Positions 10,071 to 22,231 of a stretch of 64,000 nt of DNA are shown in pieces. Below the pieces are notes generated by a model, which made no database searches, was not told the origin of the DNA, and was given only the letters and a program-made list of their open reading frames with translations. A program made the translations under genes and the position numbers. How positions within the stretch are numbered: position 1 is the stretch's first letter; every line of letters begins with the position of its first letter. The stretch is from Pseudomonas putida S13.1.2 (GTDB lineage Bacteria; Pseudomonadota; Gammaproteobacteria; Pseudomonadales; Pseudomonadaceae), in NCBI RefSeq assembly GCF_000498395.2, contig NZ_CP010979.1:558001-622000 (forward strand), written 5' to 3'.

Positions 10071-10077
10071 GAAATGG

Positions 10078-10362
10078 TCAACGCTGATTCAACGCCTTGT
10101 AGAGTTCGCCGGCAACCTCGGCAATGTTTAGGTAATCACGCCGCAAACGAACGCTATATCGGGCTTCCAGCTGCATCAACGCAAATTCGCATTTGTCGCA
10201 GTCCAGGTGTGCCAGCAAGGTACCTGGCCCTGCATCGACCACCCCTGCATCCTGAAGCATGTCGATCACTTGTCGCTCATATTCCTCACGCTGTCGACGG
10301 GTTGCGGTATCCACGATGAAGGAGGCTCCTGGCTTGATATCGAGAGCCTCAATCTTCAGCAC
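10078..10362 (-). CDS. Unknown 94-residue protein next to orphan Rhs gene
   Basis: A small acidic protein starting at a GTG (10360-10362) with a weak ribosome site. It has no signal peptide or membrane segment. The C-terminal half, LDCDKCEFALMQLEARYSVRL and what follows, looks like a helical bundle with a faint acyl-carrier-like outline, but the DSL serine is replaced by DKC, so no carrier function is claimed. Its base composition is lower in GC than the metabolic genes nearby. It lies 59 bp downstream of the Rhs1 stop on the same strand, the usual position of an immunity gene, but copy A of the flanking repeat lies between the two, so it may instead be an older resident. Confidence 0.55.
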   Translation of the reverse strand: MLKIEALDIKPGASFIVDTATRRQREEYERQVIDMLQDAGVVDAGPGTLLAHLDCDKCEFALMQLEARYSVRLRRDYLNIAEVAGELYKALNQR

Positions 10363-10380
10363 AACCCATCGGCACCGCTA

Positions 10381-10426
10381 CTGGCAAAAATATCAGGTGG
10401 CGTGGTCTACCCTTAAGCCTTTACCG
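10381..10426. repeat. Direct repeat copy A flanking Rhs1
   Basis: About 46 bp matching 11479-11524 with a few differences, both containing CAAAAATATCAGGT and TGGTCTACCCTTAAGCCTT. Copy B covers the last codons of the proline-rich gene and its downstream bases; copy A covers the Rhs1 stop and its downstream bases. The pair brackets the Rhs1 cassette. Confidence 0.8.
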
Positions 10427-11386
10427 CCTTATTCTTGCGGAATGATTGCTAGGTGCGGAAACATTGTCCATCTCGGGACGAGTTTCTGGGTAATACGTCA
10501 CCGGGCCAGCGTCCAGATACTTTTCAGCGGTCAGTACCATGTGCATAACAGGACGAGACTCAAGCGCGCCCTTTTTCAGATTGAGACGCTCCGTGAAAGC
10601 AATGACGGTTTTTCCCGTAATATTGGCGAATTGTTGAGCAAACGAGATTTCGGGGAAACCGGGGCCGTTAGTGCTAGCACTGGCACCTCCGTAGCAATTG
10701 GCCAAAAGAATGGGGCCATCCAGGAATTCGATGTTACGTTGATAGAGACGCTTTGCAAGTTTGTGCGGATTTAGGCCTCCAAGCCGCTGACCGTTTCCAT
10801 GTCCCCATATCCACGTCATGTTGTTTTTAGTGCTTTTTTCGGTCTGACCGGAAAAGACAATCACGTCACTGAAAGGCGTTGCTGGAGCTTTGCCAAAAGT
10901 GACAAAGTTTGAAGTTGCTTCAAGTTTGTGTGGGATGAATTTTCCAATGCCGCGCCCGGACGGATCTTCGAAGTTCACCGGATTTCCCGATACGAACGCA
11001 TAGGAATTGATTCCTCCAAAATCGAATGGGCTGAATCGGTCAGCACTGTTAAACCTCATCAGCGCGGGGTTGTAGGTACGATGTCCGTTGCCAAGCTGAT
11101 ATGAGGCTGTTCCTGCGTCGTATCGCTCTCCTTTGAAAGCCACCGGCAATTCGTTCTTGGGCGCGGTGTATCCATAGGCAGTAAATTGCAACGGCCCGGT
11201 GCGGGCTGGGCCTGAATACCAGGCAGCTGTGCGCTGAGAGTCAATTGCGACTAGCGCTAGGCCCTCCCTATCAAGATCAGCAGTCTTAAAGGCTAATGCG
11301 TTTCGCTGGTGTTGCATCACGCTGACTTTACGCAATGCGCTTATCGACGTTACACAAGACCAGCCCTGATAAAAGTACCAGTTCAT
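10421..11386 (-). CDS. Orphan Rhs-core protein with clan CD peptidase-like tail (Rhs1)
   Basis: The N-terminal half (about residues 65-145) is the Rhs repeat-associated core as found in short orphan genes of pseudomonads: VAFKGERYDAGTASYQLGN, YNPALMRFNSADRFSPF and FVSGNPVNFEDPSG. After DPSG comes a variable tail of about 175 residues. The tail has a hydrophobic strand (DVIVFSG), TWIWGHGNGQ with H196, and GPILLANCYGG with C231, 35 residues apart. The order strand-HG-helix-strand-C is that of clan CD cysteine peptidases (caspase, gingipain and C80 types), so a protease effector is inferred. There is no secretion signal or long repeat shell. The start is GTG 11389 or ATG 11386. It is AT-richer than its neighbours, and direct repeats flank it. 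Confidence 0.8.
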   Translation of the reverse strand: MNWYFYQGWSCVTSISALRKVSVMQHQRNALAFKTADLDREGLALVAIDSQRTAAWYSGPARTGPLQFTAYGYTAPKNELPVAFKGERYDAGTASYQLGNGHRTYNPALMRFNSADRFSPFDFGGINSYAFVSGNPVNFEDPSGRGIGKFIPHKLEATSNFVTFGKAPATPFSDVIVFSGQTEKSTKNNMTWIWGHGNGQRLGGLNPHKLAKRLYQRNIEFLDGPILLANCYGGASASTNGPGFPEISFAQQFANITGKTVIAFTERLNLKKGALESRPVMHMVLTAEKYLDAGPVTYYPETRPEMDNVSAPSNHSARIRR

Positions 11387-11435
11387 CACGTTCCCGACCC
11401 TTATGAGGAAGGTGGCGGTTCACAGCAGCGGGTTT

Positions 11436-11460
11436 GGGGCTACATGACGATGGTAGCCCC
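11436..11460. other. Hairpin upstream of Rhs1
   Basis: A perfect 8-bp stem, GGGGCTAC / GTAGCCCC, with a 9-base loop. No T-run follows on either strand, so it is not a typical terminator. It lies between the Rhs1 start and repeat copy B; its role is unknown. Confidence 0.5.
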
Positions 11461-11478
11461 GGCATACTGACAATGCGA

Positions 11479-11524
11479 CTGACAAAAATATCAGGTCTGT
11501 GGTCTACCCTTAAGCCTTCACCGG
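11479..11524. repeat. Direct repeat copy B flanking Rhs1
   Basis: Partner of the repeat at 10381-10426. It spans the final codons and stop of the proline-rich small gene plus about 30 bp beyond it. Confidence 0.8.
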
Positions 11525-11671
11525 TGGCTCCTGGCTCGGCGGGTCGCCCACCGTTGGCGGCATGGTTGGCTTGATCGGCAGCTCGTCCGGCTCTTCTTCC
11601 GGCACGGGCGGCGGCAAGCTGGGGTCGTCGATGTTGGGATCGGGGGTTTCCGGTGGAATGGGAATGTTCAT
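11510..11671 (-). CDS. Small proline-rich acidic protein
   Basis: A 53-residue protein rich in Pro, Glu and Asp (PPVPEEEPDELPIKP), predicted to be disordered, with no known domain. The ATG at 11671 is preceded by GAGGTCAGG; an upstream in-frame ATG at 11818 would run into the glgE leader on the other strand and is rejected. It is divergent from glgE, 140 bp apart. Function unknown. Its 3' end is duplicated beyond the Rhs1 gene, which suggests it was the insertion site of that cassette. Confidence 0.6.
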   Translation of the reverse strand: MNIPIPPETPDPNIDDPSLPPPVPEEEPDELPIKPTMPPTVGDPPSQEPPVKA

Positions 11672-11811
11672 GGCCTGACCTCGCGTGGGTGGAATGAAGA
11701 GGTGCTGCAGGCTCTGACCGCTGGCAGCTGCCGTTCGCTCAATTTTTTTGAACCCCGCGCCTGTACCCGGCTCTGAACCCTTACCGCCACCAGCCTGAGG
11801 GAGCAAGGTCG

Positions 11812-13830
11812 ATGTCACGTAACGAGCCCTTTGAAAGTGTGCCCATGGCGAATGATCACCCCGAGCAGGCCATCAGCCTGTCCCAGGCGCTGCTGGCGCC
11901 GCGTATCGTGATCGAAGACACCGAACCCGTGCTCGAAGCCGGCACCTTTGCCGCCAAGGCCATAAGCGGCCAGCCGGTGGCGGTCAGCAGCAAGGTCTAC
12001 AGCGATGGCCACGACCGCCTGGCGGTGATGCTCAACTGGCGCCAGGCGCACAGCCGGCGCTGGCATTGCGTGCCGATGCAATCGGCGGGCAACGACCTGT
12101 GGCTGGCCGAGTTCACCCCCACCGAACTTGGCCCGCACCTGTTCAGCATCGAGGCCTGGGTCGACCCGTTCGCCACCTATAGCCATGATTTGGAGAAAAA
12201 GTACAACGCCGGTGTCGAGGTGAAACTGGAACTGGAAGAGGGCCGCTTGATGCTGGGCAAAGGCATCGAGCTGTGCAGCGGTGCCGTGCGCGATGAGCTC
12301 GAAGCGCTGCAGCAGCGCCTGGCGGAACTGGATACCGACGGGCAGGTGGCACTGTTGCTGGGCCCGGACGTTGCGCACCTGATGAGCGAAGCGGGGCACC
12401 GCAGTTACCTGGCCCGCAGCCGCGAGTTCCCCGTCGATGTCGACCGCCCGGCCGCGCAGTTCGCCAGTTGGTACGAGCTGTTCCCGCGCTCGATCACCGA
12501 CGACCCACAGCGCCACGGCACCTTCAACGATGTGCACCAACGCCTGCCGATGATCCGTGACATGGGCTTCGATGTGCTGTACTTCCCGCCCATCCACCCC
12601 ATCGGCACGCAGCACCGCAAGGGCCGCAACAACGCCCTCAAGGCCGAGCCCGGCGACCCTGGCAGCCCCTATGCCATCGGCAGTGCCGAAGGCGGCCATG
12701 ACGCCATCCATCCGCAGCTGGGCACGCGGGAAGACTTCCGTCGGCTGGTTGCCGCCGCCGCCGAGCATGGCCTGGAAATCGCCCTGGATTTCGCTATCCA
12801 GTGCTCGCAGGACCACCCTTGGCTCAAAGAGCACCCCGGCTGGTTCAGCTGGCGCCCGGACGGCACCATTCGCTACGCCGAGAACCCGCCGAAAAAGTAC
12901 CAGGACATTGTCAACGTCGATTTCTACGCCCCGGATGCCGTCCCGTCGCTGTGGCTGGCGCTGCGCGACGTGGTGGTCGGCTGGGTAGAGGAGGGCGTGA
13001 AAACCTTCCGCGTCGACAACCCGCACACCAAACCACTGCCGTTCTGGCAATGGCTGATTGCCAATGTGCGCAGCCAGCACCCCGACGTCATCTTCCTTGC
13101 CGAAGCGTTCACCCGGCCGGCGATGATGGCGCGTCTGGGCAAGGTTGGCTACGCGCAAAGCTATACCTACTTCACCTGGCGCAACCAGAAGCAGGAACTG
13201 CGCGAGTATTTCGAGCAGCTTAACCAGCCGCCGTGGAGCCAGTGCTACCGGCCCAACTTCTTTGTCAACACGCCGGATATCAACCCGTTCTTCCTGCACA
13301 CTTCCGGTCGTGCCGGGTTCCTCATTCGCGCCGCGCTGGCCACCATGGGCTCCGGCCTGTGGGGCATGTACTCCGGCTTCGAGCTGTGCGAAAGCGCGCC
13401 GCTGCCGGGCAAGGAGGAATACCTGGATTCGGAGAAATACCAGATTCGCCCGCGCGATTTCACCCAGCCCGGCAACATCATTGCCGAGATCGCCCAGCTC
13501 AACCGCATTCGCCGGCAGAACCGCGCCTTGCAAACGCACCTGGGCGTGGCGTTTTTCAACTGCTGGAACGACAACATCCTGTACTTCGCCAAGCGCACGC
13601 CCGAGCGTGACAATTTCATCCTGGTGGCGATCAGCCTGGACCCGCACAACGCCCAGGAGGCGCATTTCGAGCTGCCGCTGTGGGAGCTGGGGCTGGACGA
13701 CGACGCCGACACTCAAGGCGAAGACTTGATGAACGGCCACCGCTGGACCTGGCATGGCAAGACCCAATGGATGCGTATTGAGCCCTGGCATCAGCCATTC
13801 GGAATCTGGCGCATCGAAAAAGCCCGTTAA
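11812..13830 (+). CDS. glgE: Alpha-1,4-glucan:maltose-1-phosphate maltosyltransferase
   Basis: Adds maltosyl units from alpha-maltose 1-phosphate to the non-reducing end of alpha-1,4-glucans. At 672 residues it matches the family. An N-terminal beta domain is followed by a GH13 barrel with YFPPIHPIG, nucleophile D402 in FRVDNPHTKP, and general acid E431 in FLAEAFTRP, then a C-terminal beta domain. The VDNPHTKP form is diagnostic for GlgE (GH13_3) against ordinary amylases. The first ATG (11812) has an AAGG site; M12 is a possible alternative. It leads the plus-strand arm glgE-treS-glgB and takes the product of the maltokinase half of the next gene. A REP pair separates the two. Confidence 0.95.
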   Translation: MSRNEPFESVPMANDHPEQAISLSQALLAPRIVIEDTEPVLEAGTFAAKAISGQPVAVSSKVYSDGHDRLAVMLNWRQAHSRRWHCVPMQSAGNDLWLAEFTPTELGPHLFSIEAWVDPFATYSHDLEKKYNAGVEVKLELEEGRLMLGKGIELCSGAVRDELEALQQRLAELDTDGQVALLLGPDVAHLMSEAGHRSYLARSREFPVDVDRPAAQFASWYELFPRSITDDPQRHGTFNDVHQRLPMIRDMGFDVLYFPPIHPIGTQHRKGRNNALKAEPGDPGSPYAIGSAEGGHDAIHPQLGTREDFRRLVAAAAEHGLEIALDFAIQCSQDHPWLKEHPGWFSWRPDGTIRYAENPPKKYQDIVNVDFYAPDAVPSLWLALRDVVVGWVEEGVKTFRVDNPHTKPLPFWQWLIANVRSQHPDVIFLAEAFTRPAMMARLGKVGYAQSYTYFTWRNQKQELREYFEQLNQPPWSQCYRPNFFVNTPDINPFFLHTSGRAGFLIRAALATMGSGLWGMYSGFELCESAPLPGKEEYLDSEKYQIRPRDFTQPGNIIAEIAQLNRIRRQNRALQTHLGVAFFNCWNDNILYFAKRTPERDNFILVAISLDPHNAQEAHFELPLWELGLDDDADTQGEDLMNGHRWTWHGKTQWMRIEPWHQPFGIWRIEKAR

Positions 13831-17304: not shown

Positions 17305-19515
17305 ATGAATGCAACCACGCGTGAAAACGGCGGCCTTCGGCAACGGGACCTGGACGCCCTGGCCCGCGCCGAACACGCCGATCCTTTTGCAGTACTTGGC
17401 CCCCATGGCGACGGCAAGGGCGGTGTGTTTATCCGCGCCTTTCTGCCCAATGCGCTGAATGCACGGGTGCTGGCGCGCGATGATGGGCGCGTGCTGGCCG
17501 AAATGGTGCAAGGTGCAGTGCCGGGGTTGTTCACCGCGCACCTTGATGATGCACAAGCCTATCTGCTGCAAATCGGCTGGGCCGGTGGCGAGCAAGTCAC
17601 CGAAGACCCTTACAGCTTTGGCCCGCAACTGGGCGACATGGACTTGCACCTGTTCGCCGAAGGCAACCACCGCGACTTGTCCGGGCGCTTCGGGGCCCAG
17701 CCGATCCAGGTGGATGGCATCGACGGCGTGTGTTTCTCGGTATGGGCGCCGAATGCCCGGCGGGTATCGGTGGTGGGTGATTTCAACAACTGGGACGGCC
17801 GCCGCCACCCCATGCGCCTGCGCCACGGCGCCGGGGTGTGGGAGCTGTTCGTGCCGCGCCTGGGCGTGGGCGAAACCTACAAGTTCGAGGTGCTGGGCAA
17901 GGACGGGATACTGCCACTCAAGGCAGACCCGCTGGCCCGCGCTACCGAATTGCCGCCGAGCACCGCGTCCAAGGTGGCCGGTGAGCTCAGCCATGCGTGG
18001 CAGGACCACGACTGGATGGCACAGCGGGCCCAGCGCCATGCCTACAATGCGCCCTTGTCGATCTACGAACTGCACCCAGGGTCATGGCGCTGCGAACTGG
18101 ACGAGGCAGGTGAAGTCGGCCGCTACTACAACTGGCGCGAACTGGCCGAGCGGCTGGTGCCCTATGTGCAGGAGCTGGGCTTTACCCATATCGAATTGCT
18201 GCCGATCATGGAGCACCCGTTCGGCGGCTCCTGGGGCTACCAGCCACTGTCGATGTTCGCGCCCACCTCGCGTTACGGCACTGCCGAGGACTTTGCCGCG
18301 TTCATCGATGCCTGCCACCAAGGCGGCATTGGCGTGCTGCTGGATTGGGTGCCGGCGCATTTCCCCACTGACGAACACGGCCTGGCGCGTTTCGACGGCA
18401 CCGCGCTGTACGAATACGACAACCCCCTGGAGGGCTACCACCAGGACTGGAACACGCTGATCTACAACCTTGGCCGCAACGAAGTGCGCGGCTTCATGAT
18501 GGCCTCGGCGCTGCACTGGCTGAAGCACTTCCACATCGACGGCCTGCGCGTGGATGCGGTGGCCTCGATGCTGTACCGCGACTATTCGCGCAAGGCCGGC
18601 GAATGGGTGCCCAACCGCTACGGCGGGCGCGAGAACCTGGAGGCTATCGACTTCATTCGCCACCTCAACGGCGTGGCTGCCGTCGAGGCCCCCGGTGCAT
18701 TGATCATCGCCGAGGAGTCCACCGCCTGGCCCGGCGTCAGCCAGCCGACCCAGCAGGGCGGCCTGGGCTTTGCCTACAAGTGGAACATGGGCTGGATGCA
18801 CGACACCCTGCATTACATCCAGAACGACCCGGTGCACCGCACCCACCACCACAACGAGATGAGCTTCGGGCTGATCTACGCCTATTCCGAGCATTTCATC
18901 CTGCCCATCTCCCATGACGAAGTGGTGCATGGCAAACACTCGCTGATCGACAAGATGCCCGGCGACCGCTGGCAGAAGTTTGCCAACCTGCGCGCCTACC
19001 TCACCTTCATGTGGGCGCACCCTGGCAAGAAGTTGCTGTTCATGGGCTGCGAGTTCGGCCAGTGGCGTGAGTGGGACCATGACAGCGAATTGGACTGGTA
19101 CCTGTTGCAGTACCCCGAGCACCAAGGCGTGCAGCGCCTGGTGGGCGACCTCAACCGTCTGTACCGCGAAGAGCCGGCGCTGCACGAGCAGGATTGCCAG
19201 CCGCAGGGCTTCCAGTGGCTGATTGGCGACGACGCGCAGAACAGCGTGTACGCCTGGCTGCGCTGGAGCAGCAGCGGCGAGCCGGTGCTGGTGGTAGCCA
19301 ACTTCACCCCGGTACCGCGTGAGGGCTACCGTATTGGCGTGCCGTTTGGCGAGCGCTGGCAAGAGCTGCTGAACAGCGATGCCGAGCTGTACGCTGGGTC
19401 CAACGTGGGCAACCTGGGGGCAGTGGCCAGTGAGGCAGTGGCCAGCCATGGGCAGCCATTGTCGCTGGCGCTAAATTTGCCGCCGCTTGGCGTTTTGATA
19501 ATGAAACCGGCCTGA
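17305..19515 (+). CDS. glgB: 1,4-alpha-glucan branching enzyme
   Basis: Introduces alpha-1,6 branches into the glucan made by GlgE or GlgA. 736 residues: an N1 domain ([18 protein letters not shown]), a CBM48 domain with [21 protein letters not shown], a GH13 barrel with nucleophile D417 ([15 protein letters not shown]) and acid E470 (IAEESTAWP), [12 protein letters not shown], and a C-terminal beta domain. The ATG directly abuts the treS stop (TAGATG), so translational coupling is likely. The size and N1 domain match the proteobacterial long form. Confidence 0.96.
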
Positions 19516-19529
19516 CGTTTTGCCTGCAC

Positions 19530-19627
19530 TGGCCTCTTCGCGGGCATGCCCGCTCCCACAGGGATTGCACAATGTTCAGTCCCTGTGCTGTCGCTGTGGG
19601 AGCGGGCGCGCCCGCGAAAGGGCCGGG
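19530..19627. repeat. REP pair after glgB
   Basis: Two inverted REPs (cores at about 19535-19562 and 19592-19620) between glgB and the truncated autotransporter copy. They probably mark the original junction between glgB and the autotransporter 3' end. Confidence 0.9.
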
Positions 19628-19632
19628 CCTGC

Positions 19633-19992
19633 CTACCACCTCATCCGCACCCCAAGGCTGCCAATCAGCCCGTTCAGGTCATTGTCATCCACATCGCTGC
19701 TGTAGTCGGCGCTGACAAACAAGGCCACAGAAGGCGTCACCCGCGCCACCAGCCCCAAGCCCAATTCCACCGTGGTGGAGTAACGCGAGCTGGAGATCTT
19801 GTCGACCTGGTCCAGCTTCACTTCGTCGGCATTGCTGAAGTCGTACCATACGTTGGTCCGCACATAGGGCTCGATGGGCATGCCGTGCACTTCGTAGCGC
19901 CCGGACAATCTGGCACCGACCCGGCCGCTCCAGCTCGGCTGGCTGTCGAAGGCTTGCAGGGTTTCTTCTTGCACCTGGTTGCCGGGGAAGAA
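19633..19992 (-). pseudogene. Duplicated 3' end of the autotransporter gene
   Basis: 360 bp aligned without gaps to the last 360 bp of the intact autotransporter gene (21155-21514). Eight base differences, all within about 115 bp of the stop and all synonymous; the other ~245 bp are identical. It encodes the C-terminal beta-barrel strands up to the terminal RMRW but has no start, signal peptide or upstream part. The match ends abruptly at 19992. It is read as the displaced native gene end left when the Rhs2 cassette inserted. Confidence 0.9.
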
Positions 19993-21154
19993 GCCCTGGT
20001 ATTTCTGCTAGTTGTGCTTCTGGGATCGCGAATGAGATCTTGCTTCTCATCATTCCTGATCTCATCTGTAGAGGGGCAGAACCATGTCAGCATGCAGACG
20101 TTTTTTTTACCTACAGGGGCGGCTAGCGGTATCAACTGATCCAGTCGGAAACTGGGCAAGTCGTATCTTGCGACATGGGCCCATTGCTTTGTCTTGTCGT
20201 ACGGAAGGCCCGCAAGAAATCTCGACGAGCTTGTATAAAACTGACGTGCCCGGATCGGTGCTTGGGGATCAACATCTGCACACGATTGCCTATTCTCCGT
20301 ACGGGCACCGACCCGTGTCTATACAAATACAACTGGGCTTTAACGGCGAACGCAAAGACCCTGTCATCGCGAGCTACTTGCTTGGGAATGGAAAAAGAGT
20401 CTACAGCCCAATGCTCATGCGCTTTCTTAGCCCTGACGACTGGAGCCCATTTGCGCAAGGCGGGCTGAATTGCTATGCCTACTGCCAGGGTGACCCCGTC
20501 AACAAGTCCGATCCGACAGGCAGGGCACCTTATTGGCGTCCGAAAATCAGCGCCTTGGTTAAGGACCTCAAGAGCGCGGAAAGTTTCATGAACGGCCTGC
20601 GCCTGCCAGAGAATGGAGGTTTACGGGTGAAGGGTTTTATCATGAATAGTAAGGGAACTGACGGAACTGCGTTTACACTGAAGCTCGTGGGCGATGACTA
20701 TGCAGTGAAGACACATCCAGAAGTCGGTGTGCCCACTGACTTGACAGGCTATCGTCATCCTGGAACCAATACGTTCTTCTATGTGGGTAAAACTGGCACG
20801 CCTCCAAGGCGGTCAACGCCCTCTACTGGGTCAACAGCATCGTCCTCATTGGCCGCAGTCGCACCTCCATCCCAGATAACTCAGTCTGAGCTAGCGACTC
20901 TGTCGTCGGCTGCCGAGTCTCATCGGGATCTTTTGAATTCGGGCTTCCAATATGCAAATTGGACAATGTTCAACGATCCCGACATCTATGTCTACGTTGG
21001 ATCTATCAGGCAGGACGCGGCGCTGGGTAATGTCTAGACACCTGTGGACACGGCCTGTCGCTTAACATTGCTAAACATGTTCAAACTTCGATTGATGGGC
21101 GGGCAAACCAGGTTGTCAGGCGCATGAGCGCGCCTGACAATTTAAGCAGCCGTT
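19993..21154 (+). mobile_element. Inferred Rhs2 cassette between duplicated gene ends
   Basis: A stretch of about 1.16 kb holding only Rhs2 and short flanks, visibly AT-richer than its surroundings, bounded on the left by the truncated autotransporter copy and on the right by the stop of the intact one. A dyad, ATGAGATC / GATCTCAT (20032-20039, 20058-20065), lies before Rhs2. No transposase, integrase or terminal inverted repeat is seen. The mobile nature is inferred from the duplication and base composition. Confidence 0.5.
20084..21037 (+). CDS. Orphan Rhs-core protein with unknown tail (Rhs2)
   Basis: 317 residues. After a short unconserved start comes the Rhs-associated core: AYSPYGHRP, LGFNGERKDPVIASYLLGN, YSPMLMRFLSPDDWSPF and YAYCQGDPVNKSDPTG. 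This ends near residue 145, followed by about 170 residues of variable tail with no domain I recognise; a Ser/Thr/Pro-rich linker divides it. A GAGGGGC ribosome site precedes ATG 20084. By family it is probably the C-terminal tip of a polymorphic toxin, but the secreted shell is absent. No candidate immunity gene follows: only 117 bp separate it from the convergent autotransporter stop. Lower GC than its neighbours. Confidence 0.8.
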   Translation: MSACRRFFYLQGRLAVSTDPVGNWASRILRHGPIALSCRTEGPQEISTSLYKTDVPGSVLGDQHLHTIAYSPYGHRPVSIQIQLGFNGERKDPVIASYLLGNGKRVYSPMLMRFLSPDDWSPFAQGGLNCYAYCQGDPVNKSDPTGRAPYWRPKISALVKDLKSAESFMNGLRLPENGGLRVKGFIMNSKGTDGTAFTLKLVGDDYAVKTHPEVGVPTDLTGYRHPGTNTFFYVGKTGTPPRRSTPSTGSTASSSLAAVAPPSQITQSELATLSSAAESHRDLLNSGFQYANWTMFNDPDIYVYVGSIRQDAALGNV

Positions 21155-22231
21155 TTACCACCGCATCCGCACACCAAGGCTGCCAATCAATCCGTTCAGG
21201 TCATTGTCATCCACATCACTGCTGTAATCGGCGCTGACAAACAAGGCCACAGAAGGCGTCACCCGCGCTACCAGCCCCAAGCCCAATTCCACCGTGGTGG
21301 AGTAACGCGAGCTGGAGATCTTGTCGACCTGGTCCAGCTTCACTTCGTCGGCATTGCTGAAGTCGTACCATACGTTGGTCCGCACATAGGGCTCGATGGG
21401 CATGCCGTGCACTTCGTAGCGCCCGGACAATCTGGCACCGACCCGGCCGCTCCAGCTCGGCTGGCTGTCGAAGGCTTGCAGGGTTTCTTCTTGCACCTGG
21501 TTGCCGGGGAAGAACTGCTGGTTGATCAACTGGGCCTGGGGTTCGATCACCCAGTTGCCGCCCAGGCGGATCGGGTAGCCGCCTTCCACCGAGAAGGTCA
21601 TCGCATGGCCGCTGTCGTCCAGGCGCTGGCCGTTTTCGCCACGGCCCAGTACATCGATCCGCGAACCCATGGCCACGGCATCAAGGTGCCAGCCCTGTTC
21701 ATGGGTCATGCTCCAGTACACGCCCAGGCTTTCCCCGCTCAGGTTCACCGCATTGCGCTGCTTGTCGCCCAGCAGCGGGCGCATGCCGTTGAAGGTGCTC
21801 TGCAGGTTGTTGTGCCCCACGAAAACCCCAGCGCGGTGCACATTGCCCGCTGCAGTTTCACGCACGAACAGGTCCGGGCCGATCACCAGTTGCTGGCTGG
21901 GTGCCTCCAGCTGGTCTGGGGGTTGTGCACCATTGCGCGCGGTGGTCGGGAAAAACTGTGCCCACTGGCTGGCGATCATGTCCGGCGCCGCCTGCCCGTG
22001 GCGGGCGCTCATCGTTTGCGAAAACGCAGTGAGGGTGCCGATGCTCAAGCCACTGGCGCTCACCGGGTCAAGCGACATCTGCGGCATCGCGGGCTGTTGC
22101 AGAAAGCCAGGCGAGGTGGGGTCACCTTGCAGTTCGTACGCGAAAGTTTCCACCGGGGTTGCCAGAAGCAGCGACGTGGAAACCGCGTAGAAAATGCTGT
22201 CGAAGCGCAAGGGTTTCGAGGTGCTTTTCAT
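21155..22231 (-). CDS. Short autotransporter, outer-membrane beta-barrel protein
   Basis: 358 residues: a signal peptide (basic start MKSTSKPLR, hydrophobic core, probable cleavage near VETFA), about 80 residues with no recognised domain, then a beta-barrel translocator of about 250 residues ending in an aromatic residue (RMRW), as outer-membrane barrels do. It therefore has almost no passenger. The ATG at 22231 has an AAAGGAG site; upstream in-frame codons are rejected. The last 360 bp are repeated beyond the Rhs2 cassette. The function is unknown; it may display only its short N-terminal part. Confidence 0.8.
   Translation of the reverse strand: MKSTSKPLRFDSIFYAVSTSLLLATPVETFAYELQGDPTSPGFLQQPAMPQMSLDPVSASGLSIGTLTAFSQTMSARHGQAAPDMIASQWAQFFPTTARNGAQPPDQLEAPSQQLVIGPDLFVRETAAGNVHRAGVFVGHNNLQSTFNGMRPLLGDKQRNAVNLSGESLGVYWSMTHEQGWHLDAVAMGSRIDVLGRGENGQRLDDSGHAMTFSVEGGYPIRLGGNWVIEPQAQLINQQFFPGNQVQEETLQAFDSQPSWSGRVGARLSGRYEVHGMPIEPYVRTNVWYDFSNADEVKLDQVDKISSSRYSTTVELGLGLVARVTPSVALFVSADYSSDVDDNDLNGLIGSLGVRMRW

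What the first reader, a model, noticed from the sequence alone, without database searches (positions are those of the whole stretch)
19633..21514. Rhs2 cassette flanked by a 360-bp duplication of a gene's 3' end
The last 360 bp of the autotransporter gene occur twice in the same orientation, on both sides of a single orphan Rhs gene. The copies align without gaps. Eight differences all lie in the ~115 bp nearest the stop codon and all are synonymous; the remaining ~245 bp are identical. A simple tandem duplication would not put all divergence at one end and keep the protein unchanged. A better fit is a cassette that brought its own allele of the 3' end from a related strain, restored the host gene on one side, and left the old end as a remnant on the other. 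That resembles integrative elements that rebuild their target gene, but no integrase is visible.
Basis: partly seen in the sequence, partly recalled or inferred. Interest (0 to 1): 0.8.

Follow-up and report, generated by a model that had tools for sequence, protein, structure and literature searches.

The report
Toxin-gene import leaving duplicated gene ends
A solitary toxin-like gene entered this soil bacterium together with a copy of its neighbour gene's tail, which kept the neighbour intact and left the old tail behind as a fossil; the same kind of scar turns up beside such genes at several other places in related bacteria.

Summary
In detail: 19633-19992 and 21155-21514 align without gaps; all 8 differences lie in the stop-proximal 115 bp and are synonymous. 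The left copy keeps native downstream sequence, the intact gene's copy does not. Among 72 related loci none shows a second gene end or a Rhs core, and 50 are plainly empty. Both bases at all 8 positions are natural alleles. So the intact gene carries an imported 3' tip and the remnant is the old end.

It is not isolated. A scan of 91 regions with 109 Rhs cores gave the same scar at other host genes: a dehydrogenase gene in four genomes with four different break points, an ABC permease, an aldo/keto reductase and an aldehyde dehydrogenase. In these eight cases the host gene converges on the Rhs gene and is intact on its 3' side.

Best mechanism: one homologous crossover in the neighbour gene plus one non-homologous join upstream of the Rhs gene. 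It is a new variant of known orphan-toxin displacement. A 17-bp palindrome precedes 74 of 109 Rhs cores; it looks regulatory, and my searches found it in no paper.

The parts
17305..19515 (+). glgB, conserved neighbour
   Evidence: GlgB_N and alpha-amylase domains
19516..19632 (.). native intergenic DNA with a REP-like inverted repeat; continues from the remnant's stop as in relatives
   Evidence: inverted repeat 19531-19571/19584-19624; comparison with relatives
19633..19992 (-). remnant: old (native) 3' end of the autotransporter gene
19993..20083 (+). head of the imported stretch; the non-homologous join lies at 19992/19993
   Evidence: similarity to the gene ends here
19996..20012 (+). 17-bp palindromic motif CTGGTATTTCTGCTAGT, 3 bp from the join
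   Evidence: G000:577996-578012
20084..21037 (+). orphan Rhs-core gene, 317 aa
   Evidence: TIGR03696 E 1.3e-19
21038..21154 (.). tail of the imported stretch; holds an inverted repeat at 21113-21140 that may serve as a terminator; no room for an immunity gene of usual size
   Evidence: sequence; unlike the downstream DNA of relatives
21155..21269 (-). 3' tip of the intact gene, imported allele (holds all 8 differences)
21270..21514 (-). 245 bp identical to the remnant; the homologous crossover is placed at its stop-side edge (inference)
21155..22231 (-). intact autotransporter beta-domain gene, 358 aa
   Evidence: PF03797
10421..11389 (-). second orphan Rhs-core gene of the window
   Evidence: TIGR03696 E 6.6e-18
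11475..11523 (-). repeat copy A: end of the small gene 11510-11818 plus motif 11478-11494, upstream of the second Rhs gene
10377..10426 (-). repeat copy B: about 25 bp of the same gene end plus motif 10380-10396, downstream of the second Rhs gene

Best explanation
DNA from a related bacterium carried an orphan Rhs gene lying beside, and converging on, the 3' end of the autotransporter gene. One homologous crossover in the autotransporter gene joined the recipient's gene to the donor's 3' tip, so the gene stayed intact and gained the Rhs gene behind it. The other end of the donor stretch, a few bases upstream of the Rhs gene's motif, was joined without homology inside the recipient's gene 360 bp before its stop, so the old 3' end survived as a remnant. 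Shown: the parts, the two alleles, which side is native, recurrence at other genes, the common polarity. Inferred: the donor, the vehicle, the order of strand events, and that no dedicated recombinase took part. Repeated rounds would build the arrays of Rhs genes separated by fossil gene ends seen elsewhere.
For: Native side and foreign side; 50 of 72 loci empty, none with a second end; 8 of 8 differences are standing alleles in both copies; 245 identical bases next to the join, as expected if both inner stretches are the recipient's. The same scar at a dehydrogenase gene in G265 and G289 and, by scan, at that gene in G259 and G308, an ABC permease in G308, an aldo/keto reductase in G385 and an aldehyde dehydrogenase in G390. 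Four different distances from join to stop at the same dehydrogenase gene (about 121, 210, 251 and 810 bp, from coordinates) mean separate events. One-sided homology with partial duplication of the anchor (109-950 bp in 14 sequenced clones) is known from E. coli conjugation (PMC3240628, passages).
Against: Classical homology-facilitated illegitimate recombination usually deletes recipient DNA rather than duplicating it (PMC3240628), so sister chromosomes or a circle must be involved. In most other cases mismatches are spread over the repeat, also next to the join, so the clean identical-then-divergent pattern is seen only in the finding; decay or a circular donor could explain this. No donor was found. 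In the aldehyde dehydrogenase case another gene lies between the Rhs gene and the host gene, and the remnant lacks the stop.
Confidence: 0.75

Rival explanations
1. Single crossover of a circle: a circular molecule that already held the Rhs gene fused to a truncated gene end recombined once with the gene. The parts are the same; the join is made before integration. This is a variant of the best explanation rather than its opposite.
For: In E. coli 56 of 60 recombinants had partial duplications ascribed to a circle lacking part of the fragment (PMC3240628, passages). Mismatches on both sides of several repeats fit donor sequence in both copies.
Against: In the finding it needs 245 bp of donor-recipient identity beside 7% divergence, or gene conversion.
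Confidence: 0.3
2. The whole structure, remnant included, formed in another strain and reached this one by ordinary two-sided homologous recombination.
For: Not excluded, since strains of the same species were not available; conserved flanks would make it easy (inference).
Against: No carrier appeared among the rows listed for 149 genomes or in 72 loci. It only moves the founding event elsewhere.
Confidence: 0.2
3. Site-specific integrative element that restores its target gene, with the recombinase lost or acting from elsewhere; the palindromic motif would be its site.
For: The join lies 3 bp from the motif here, 14 and 31 bp in two other cases, and 6 bp at the second Rhs site of the window.
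Against: The distance runs up to about 94 bp, 157 bp in a compound case, and about 115 bp at another site. The motif also precedes conserved genes that do not look mobile. Break points in the host gene vary.
Confidence: 0.06
4. Plain tandem duplication of the gene end, insertion of the Rhs gene between the copies, and later mutation of one copy.
For: A duplication is present.
Against: All 8 differences are clustered and synonymous, and both bases occur as natural alleles; native and foreign flanks are distributed as import predicts.
Confidence: 0.03

Closest known systems
Displacement of T6SS effector modules in Vibrio cholerae (Kirchberger 2017, PMC5361080; outline and sections 12-13 read)
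   Same: One homologous anchor and one non-homologous join add a new toxin module and push old material back; the authors propose homology-facilitated illegitimate recombination and mention strings of orphaned Rhs 3' regions.
   Different: There the anchor is the effector locus itself and immunity genes are kept; here the anchor is an unrelated convergent gene whose old 3' end is kept as a fossil, and no immunity gene is seen.
Effector swapping in Pseudomonas aeruginosa T6SS islands (PMC11751169; passages read)
   Same: Homology-facilitated illegitimate recombination is invoked for effector exchange in Pseudomonas.
   Different: Replacement beside vgrG at fixed islands; the passages I read describe no duplicated neighbour gene end.
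Orphan CdiA-CT and Rhs-CT modules (PMC3150448; passages read)
   Same: Arrays of detached C-terminal toxin modules bearing the conserved junction domain.
   Different: Those sit behind a full-length toxin gene, usually with an immunity gene and often without a start codon; these are solitary, have a start codon, an upstream motif and scattered sites.
Single-crossover partial duplications in E. coli conjugation (PMC3240628; passages read)
   Same: Partial duplication of the end of the anchor gene, 109-950 bp, after one-sided homology.
   Different: Laboratory plasmid construct, and the selected events broke lacZ; here the host gene is restored in nature.
Merodiploids from transformation in Streptococcus pneumoniae (PMC3784515; passages read)
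   Same: A hybrid donor fragment pairs with two places and leaves a duplication.
   Different: Duplications of about 100-900 kb between repeats, against about 0.1-0.9 kb here.

Membership tests
Orphan Rhs toxin module | Rhs-associated core domain | tested here: met
   TIGR03696 in 5 of 5 proteins scanned, two of them from the window
Orphan Rhs toxin module | No long N-terminal Rhs repeat part | tested here: met
   317 and 322 aa with the core starting at residue 70
Orphan Rhs toxin module | Variable C-terminal part | tested here: met
   The C-terminal 170 aa have no match in 397 other genomes at E 1e-4, while the core matches many
Orphan Rhs toxin module | Immunity gene directly downstream | tested here: not met
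   117 bp to the neighbour's stop; 43-213 bp in L343, L371, L387, L325 and L326 (coordinates)
Orphan Rhs toxin module | Toxic activity | not testable with these tools
   needs expression experiments
Product of homology-facilitated illegitimate recombination | One homologous junction | tested here: met
   the right junction runs through the gene with an allele change
Product of homology-facilitated illegitimate recombination | One non-homologous junction | tested here: met
   similarity ends at 19992/19993 apart from a short patch of shared bases after it
Product of homology-facilitated illegitimate recombination | Deletion of recipient DNA, as usually reported | tested here: not met
   a duplication instead; the usual outcome is taken from PMC3240628
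Site-specific integrative element that rebuilds its target gene | Recombinase gene in the element | tested here: inconclusive
   the frames of 80 aa or more in 19993-21154 overlap the Rhs gene; no recombinase search of the rest of the window or genome was made
Site-specific integrative element that rebuilds its target gene | Constant attachment point | tested here: not met
   four different joins at the same dehydrogenase gene and other joins elsewhere
Site-specific integrative element that rebuilds its target gene | Circular intermediate | not testable with these tools
   needs DNA from cells

The most novel reading that the evidence does not exclude
The palindromic motif is not only a control site but a preferred joining point, so that orphan Rhs genes and other motif-headed genes form a cassette-like system that stacks single toxin genes behind convergent host genes and repairs each host gene in the act.
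Probability: 0.1. Interest if true: 0.8.

Novelty: new variant of a known kind. Interest (0 to 1): 0.52.

Why it matters
Duplicated neighbour-gene ends are a readable scar: they can give the order of arrival of toxin genes, the crossover point and the imported allele. That makes the one-anchor model for the spread of orphan toxin genes testable from genomes alone, and it shows how a toxin gene can arrive behind a useful gene without breaking it. The shared upstream palindrome suggests that these scattered genes, with others such as a VRP1-domain gene, may answer to one unknown regulator.

Tried and rejected
The motif as a strict recombination site: not adopted as the main reading, because its distance to the join varies and it also precedes conserved genes. 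A donor for the Rhs C-terminal part: none in 397 other genomes. Rfam: no match at 19500-21600. The donor species of the foreign 3' tip: too few bases; the best locus matches 106 of 116. Literature on the motif: five spellings gave 0 papers, and a word search gave 9 listings whose titles and abstracts do not concern it. Literature on such scars: (0 papers); I saw listings, then passages or sections of six papers. Only open-licence PMC papers are held.

How the scan was made, with what was dropped. One search listed 107 Rhs matches in 10 genomes. I fetched regions for the short frames and left out those in open frames above 450 aa and one short one (G323:C1:4408134), which removed all matches of G163 and G145. 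The scan held 13 regions of this genome, 76 of eight other genomes, and 2 (L325, L326) chosen because the scar had already been seen. Pairs in which both copies are Rhs sequence, and REP-like pairs, were dropped. Eleven pairs passed 100 bp and 85%. One is the finding. L352 (118 bp) looks like repeat-rich intergenic DNA and is not counted as a case. The 612-bp unit in L343 and the FMN-oxidoreductase fragment in L371 have another layout. L386 flanks a broken Rhs gene that the core query missed. Of the 13 regions of this genome only the finding's passed; the second Rhs site of the window has a repeat below 100 bp. Placed at random in its own region, each pair would flank a Rhs core with a chance of 0.12-0.46, so flanking alone is modest evidence and the polarity weighs more. 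Control: 40 regions, 800 kb, of the eight other genomes gave 4 loci with qualifying pairs, 3 of them close repeats about 240-280 bp apart and 1 (L421, 395 bp, 85.3%, about 3.6 kb apart) not inspected. The motif statistic includes the 13 regions of this genome from which the motif was first read.

Full report
Observation. The window is 558001-622000 of a 6.62-Mb single-contig genome, G000. The last 360 bp of the autotransporter gene (21155-22231, minus strand, PF03797) occur again at 19633-19992 without gaps. Eight differences lie in the stop-proximal 115 bp and all are synonymous; 245 bp are identical. Between the copies is one gene, a 317-aa Rhs-core protein (TIGR03696), whose stop lies 117 bp from the autotransporter's.

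Which copy is old. In 50 of 72 related loci the autotransporter stop is 49-214 bp from the glgB stop. Of the other 22, four have glgB 1.3-5 kb away and 18 show no glgB in the stretch held. None of the 72 has a Rhs core or a second gene end there. Behind the left copy the sequence resembles that of relatives, for example P. putida W15Oct28 (L061); behind the right copy it does not. At all 8 positions both bases occur among the 72 loci, the right-copy bases in 3, 34, 30, 5, 37, 8, 63 and 26 of 72. So the intact gene holds an imported 3' tip and the remnant is the native end. In the rows listed for 149 genomes searched with the protein, only this genome has the extra partial copy. In two relatives (L084, L098) single unrelated genes lie between the autotransporter gene and glgB.

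Recurrence. Of 15 Rhs matches in this genome 13 lie in open frames below 400 aa. The second Rhs site of the window was compared in 14 relatives and three more sites in 8: at the same neighbour genes there may be another Rhs gene, a related one or none. At a zinc-dehydrogenase gene (ADH_N; 'fdhA' is my recalled label) genome G265 has Rhs gene, 852-bp copy of the gene end, Rhs gene, intact gene; G289 has the same order with 251 bp.

Scan. 91 regions with 109 Rhs cores were compared with themselves, and eleven repeat pairs passed 100 bp and 85%. Eight are host-gene cases: the autotransporter here; the dehydrogenase in G259, G308, G265 and G289; an ABC permease in G308; an aldo/keto reductase in G385; an aldehyde dehydrogenase in G390. 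In these eight the host gene is convergent with the Rhs gene and intact on its 3' side, and the remnant lies on the Rhs 5' side. In the G308 dehydrogenase case the Rhs gene is broken and its direction was read from fragments. In G390 another gene lies between Rhs and host gene, and the remnant lacks the stop. The joins lie about 360 bp (autotransporter), 121, 210, 810 and 251 bp (dehydrogenase), 349 bp (permease) and 186 bp (aldo/keto reductase) before the stop; in the last, a piece of another gene follows before the motif. Control regions of 800 kb gave four loci with qualifying pairs, three of them close repeats. What was dropped, and the weak side of this test, is in Tried and rejected.

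Second Rhs site of the window. At the end of the small gene 11510-11818, 10 of 14 relatives lack the insert. G265 and G217 have the motif and a 94-aa frame, G157 a related Rhs gene (68% DNA identity), and G227 a frame that begins like one. The five occupied genomes, this one included, leave the native sequence at the same point a few bases before the motif. Here the Rhs gene lies between the gene and the older insert, with about 25 bp of gene end plus the motif repeated. Orientation is tandem, not convergent, so it is a related but weaker case.

Mechanism. A crossover in the neighbour gene keeps it whole and brings the Rhs gene; a non-homologous join returns to the recipient gene short of its stop. 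Identity next to the join and divergence towards the stop fit a crossover at about 115 bp with both inner stretches the recipient's. A circle with later conversion gives the same parts. In most other cases mismatches are not ordered this way, so the allele argument rests on the finding alone and the others add architecture. The polarity may simply reflect that other outcomes break the neighbour gene or cut the Rhs gene from its upstream motif (inference).

Motif. CTRRYAYWTYTRYYAGT (consensus about ACCTGRYATTTYTRYCAGTWGY) occurs with at most one mismatch within 450 bp upstream of 74 of 109 Rhs cores on the sense strand, against 5 of 109 antisense and 2.8% of random windows. Exact matches: 19 in this genome against 1 for the reversed pattern, and 41 against 2 in four relatives. 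Of 198 family genomes 14 have any exact match; besides this one, only G549 (7) and G518 of another genus (13) have more than two. It also precedes non-Rhs genes, some kept across relatives, among them a VRP1-domain gene ('TcA-type' is recalled), an autochaperone-domain protein and a phosphodiesterase. This points to a control site.

Known work. Displacement by one anchor is proposed for V. cholerae modules (PMC5361080, sections 12 and 13) and P. aeruginosa effectors (PMC11751169, passages). Displaced Rhs ends in bee symbionts are in PMC8125069 (passages) and orphan modules in PMC3150448 (passages). Partial anchor duplications are in PMC3240628 (passages). What I did not find in print, is the fossil 3' end of an unrelated convergent gene, its recurrence with one polarity, and the motif.

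Limits. One genome per species; strains of the same species not seen; most genomes unnamed; toxicity untested; no general recombinase search.

Noticed in passing
window 19996-20012 (+), 11478-11494 (-), 10380-10396 (-): A 17-bp imperfect palindrome, always in sense orientation, upstream of most orphan Rhs genes and of some other genes, including one with a VRP1 domain; common in some P. putida-group genomes and in one genome of another genus, near absent elsewhere.
   Followed up: partly
window 10072-11523: Second insertion hot spot: different relatives have nothing, a motif plus a 94-aa frame, or other Rhs-like genes at the same point behind a small gene.
   Followed up: partly
L084 7358-8236, L098 7282-8412: In two relatives a single gene of unknown kind (292 and 376 aa, with similar-looking ends), one with a motif variant upstream and the other with a more degenerate one, lies between the autotransporter gene and glgB. 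The 292-aa protein has no Pfam match.
   Followed up: partly
L343 (genome G259, 432500-447500): Array of four Rhs cores at the dehydrogenase site, with a gene-end remnant and a 612-bp unit repeated together with its motif.
   Followed up: partly
window 21038-21154; L343, L371, L387, L325, L326: Only 43-213 bp separate these Rhs genes from the next gene's stop, so there is no room for an ordinary immunity gene.
   Followed up: partly
G000 1432196 region (L203): A motif followed by the start of an Rhs-like gene whose reading frame is broken; described only.
   Followed up: no
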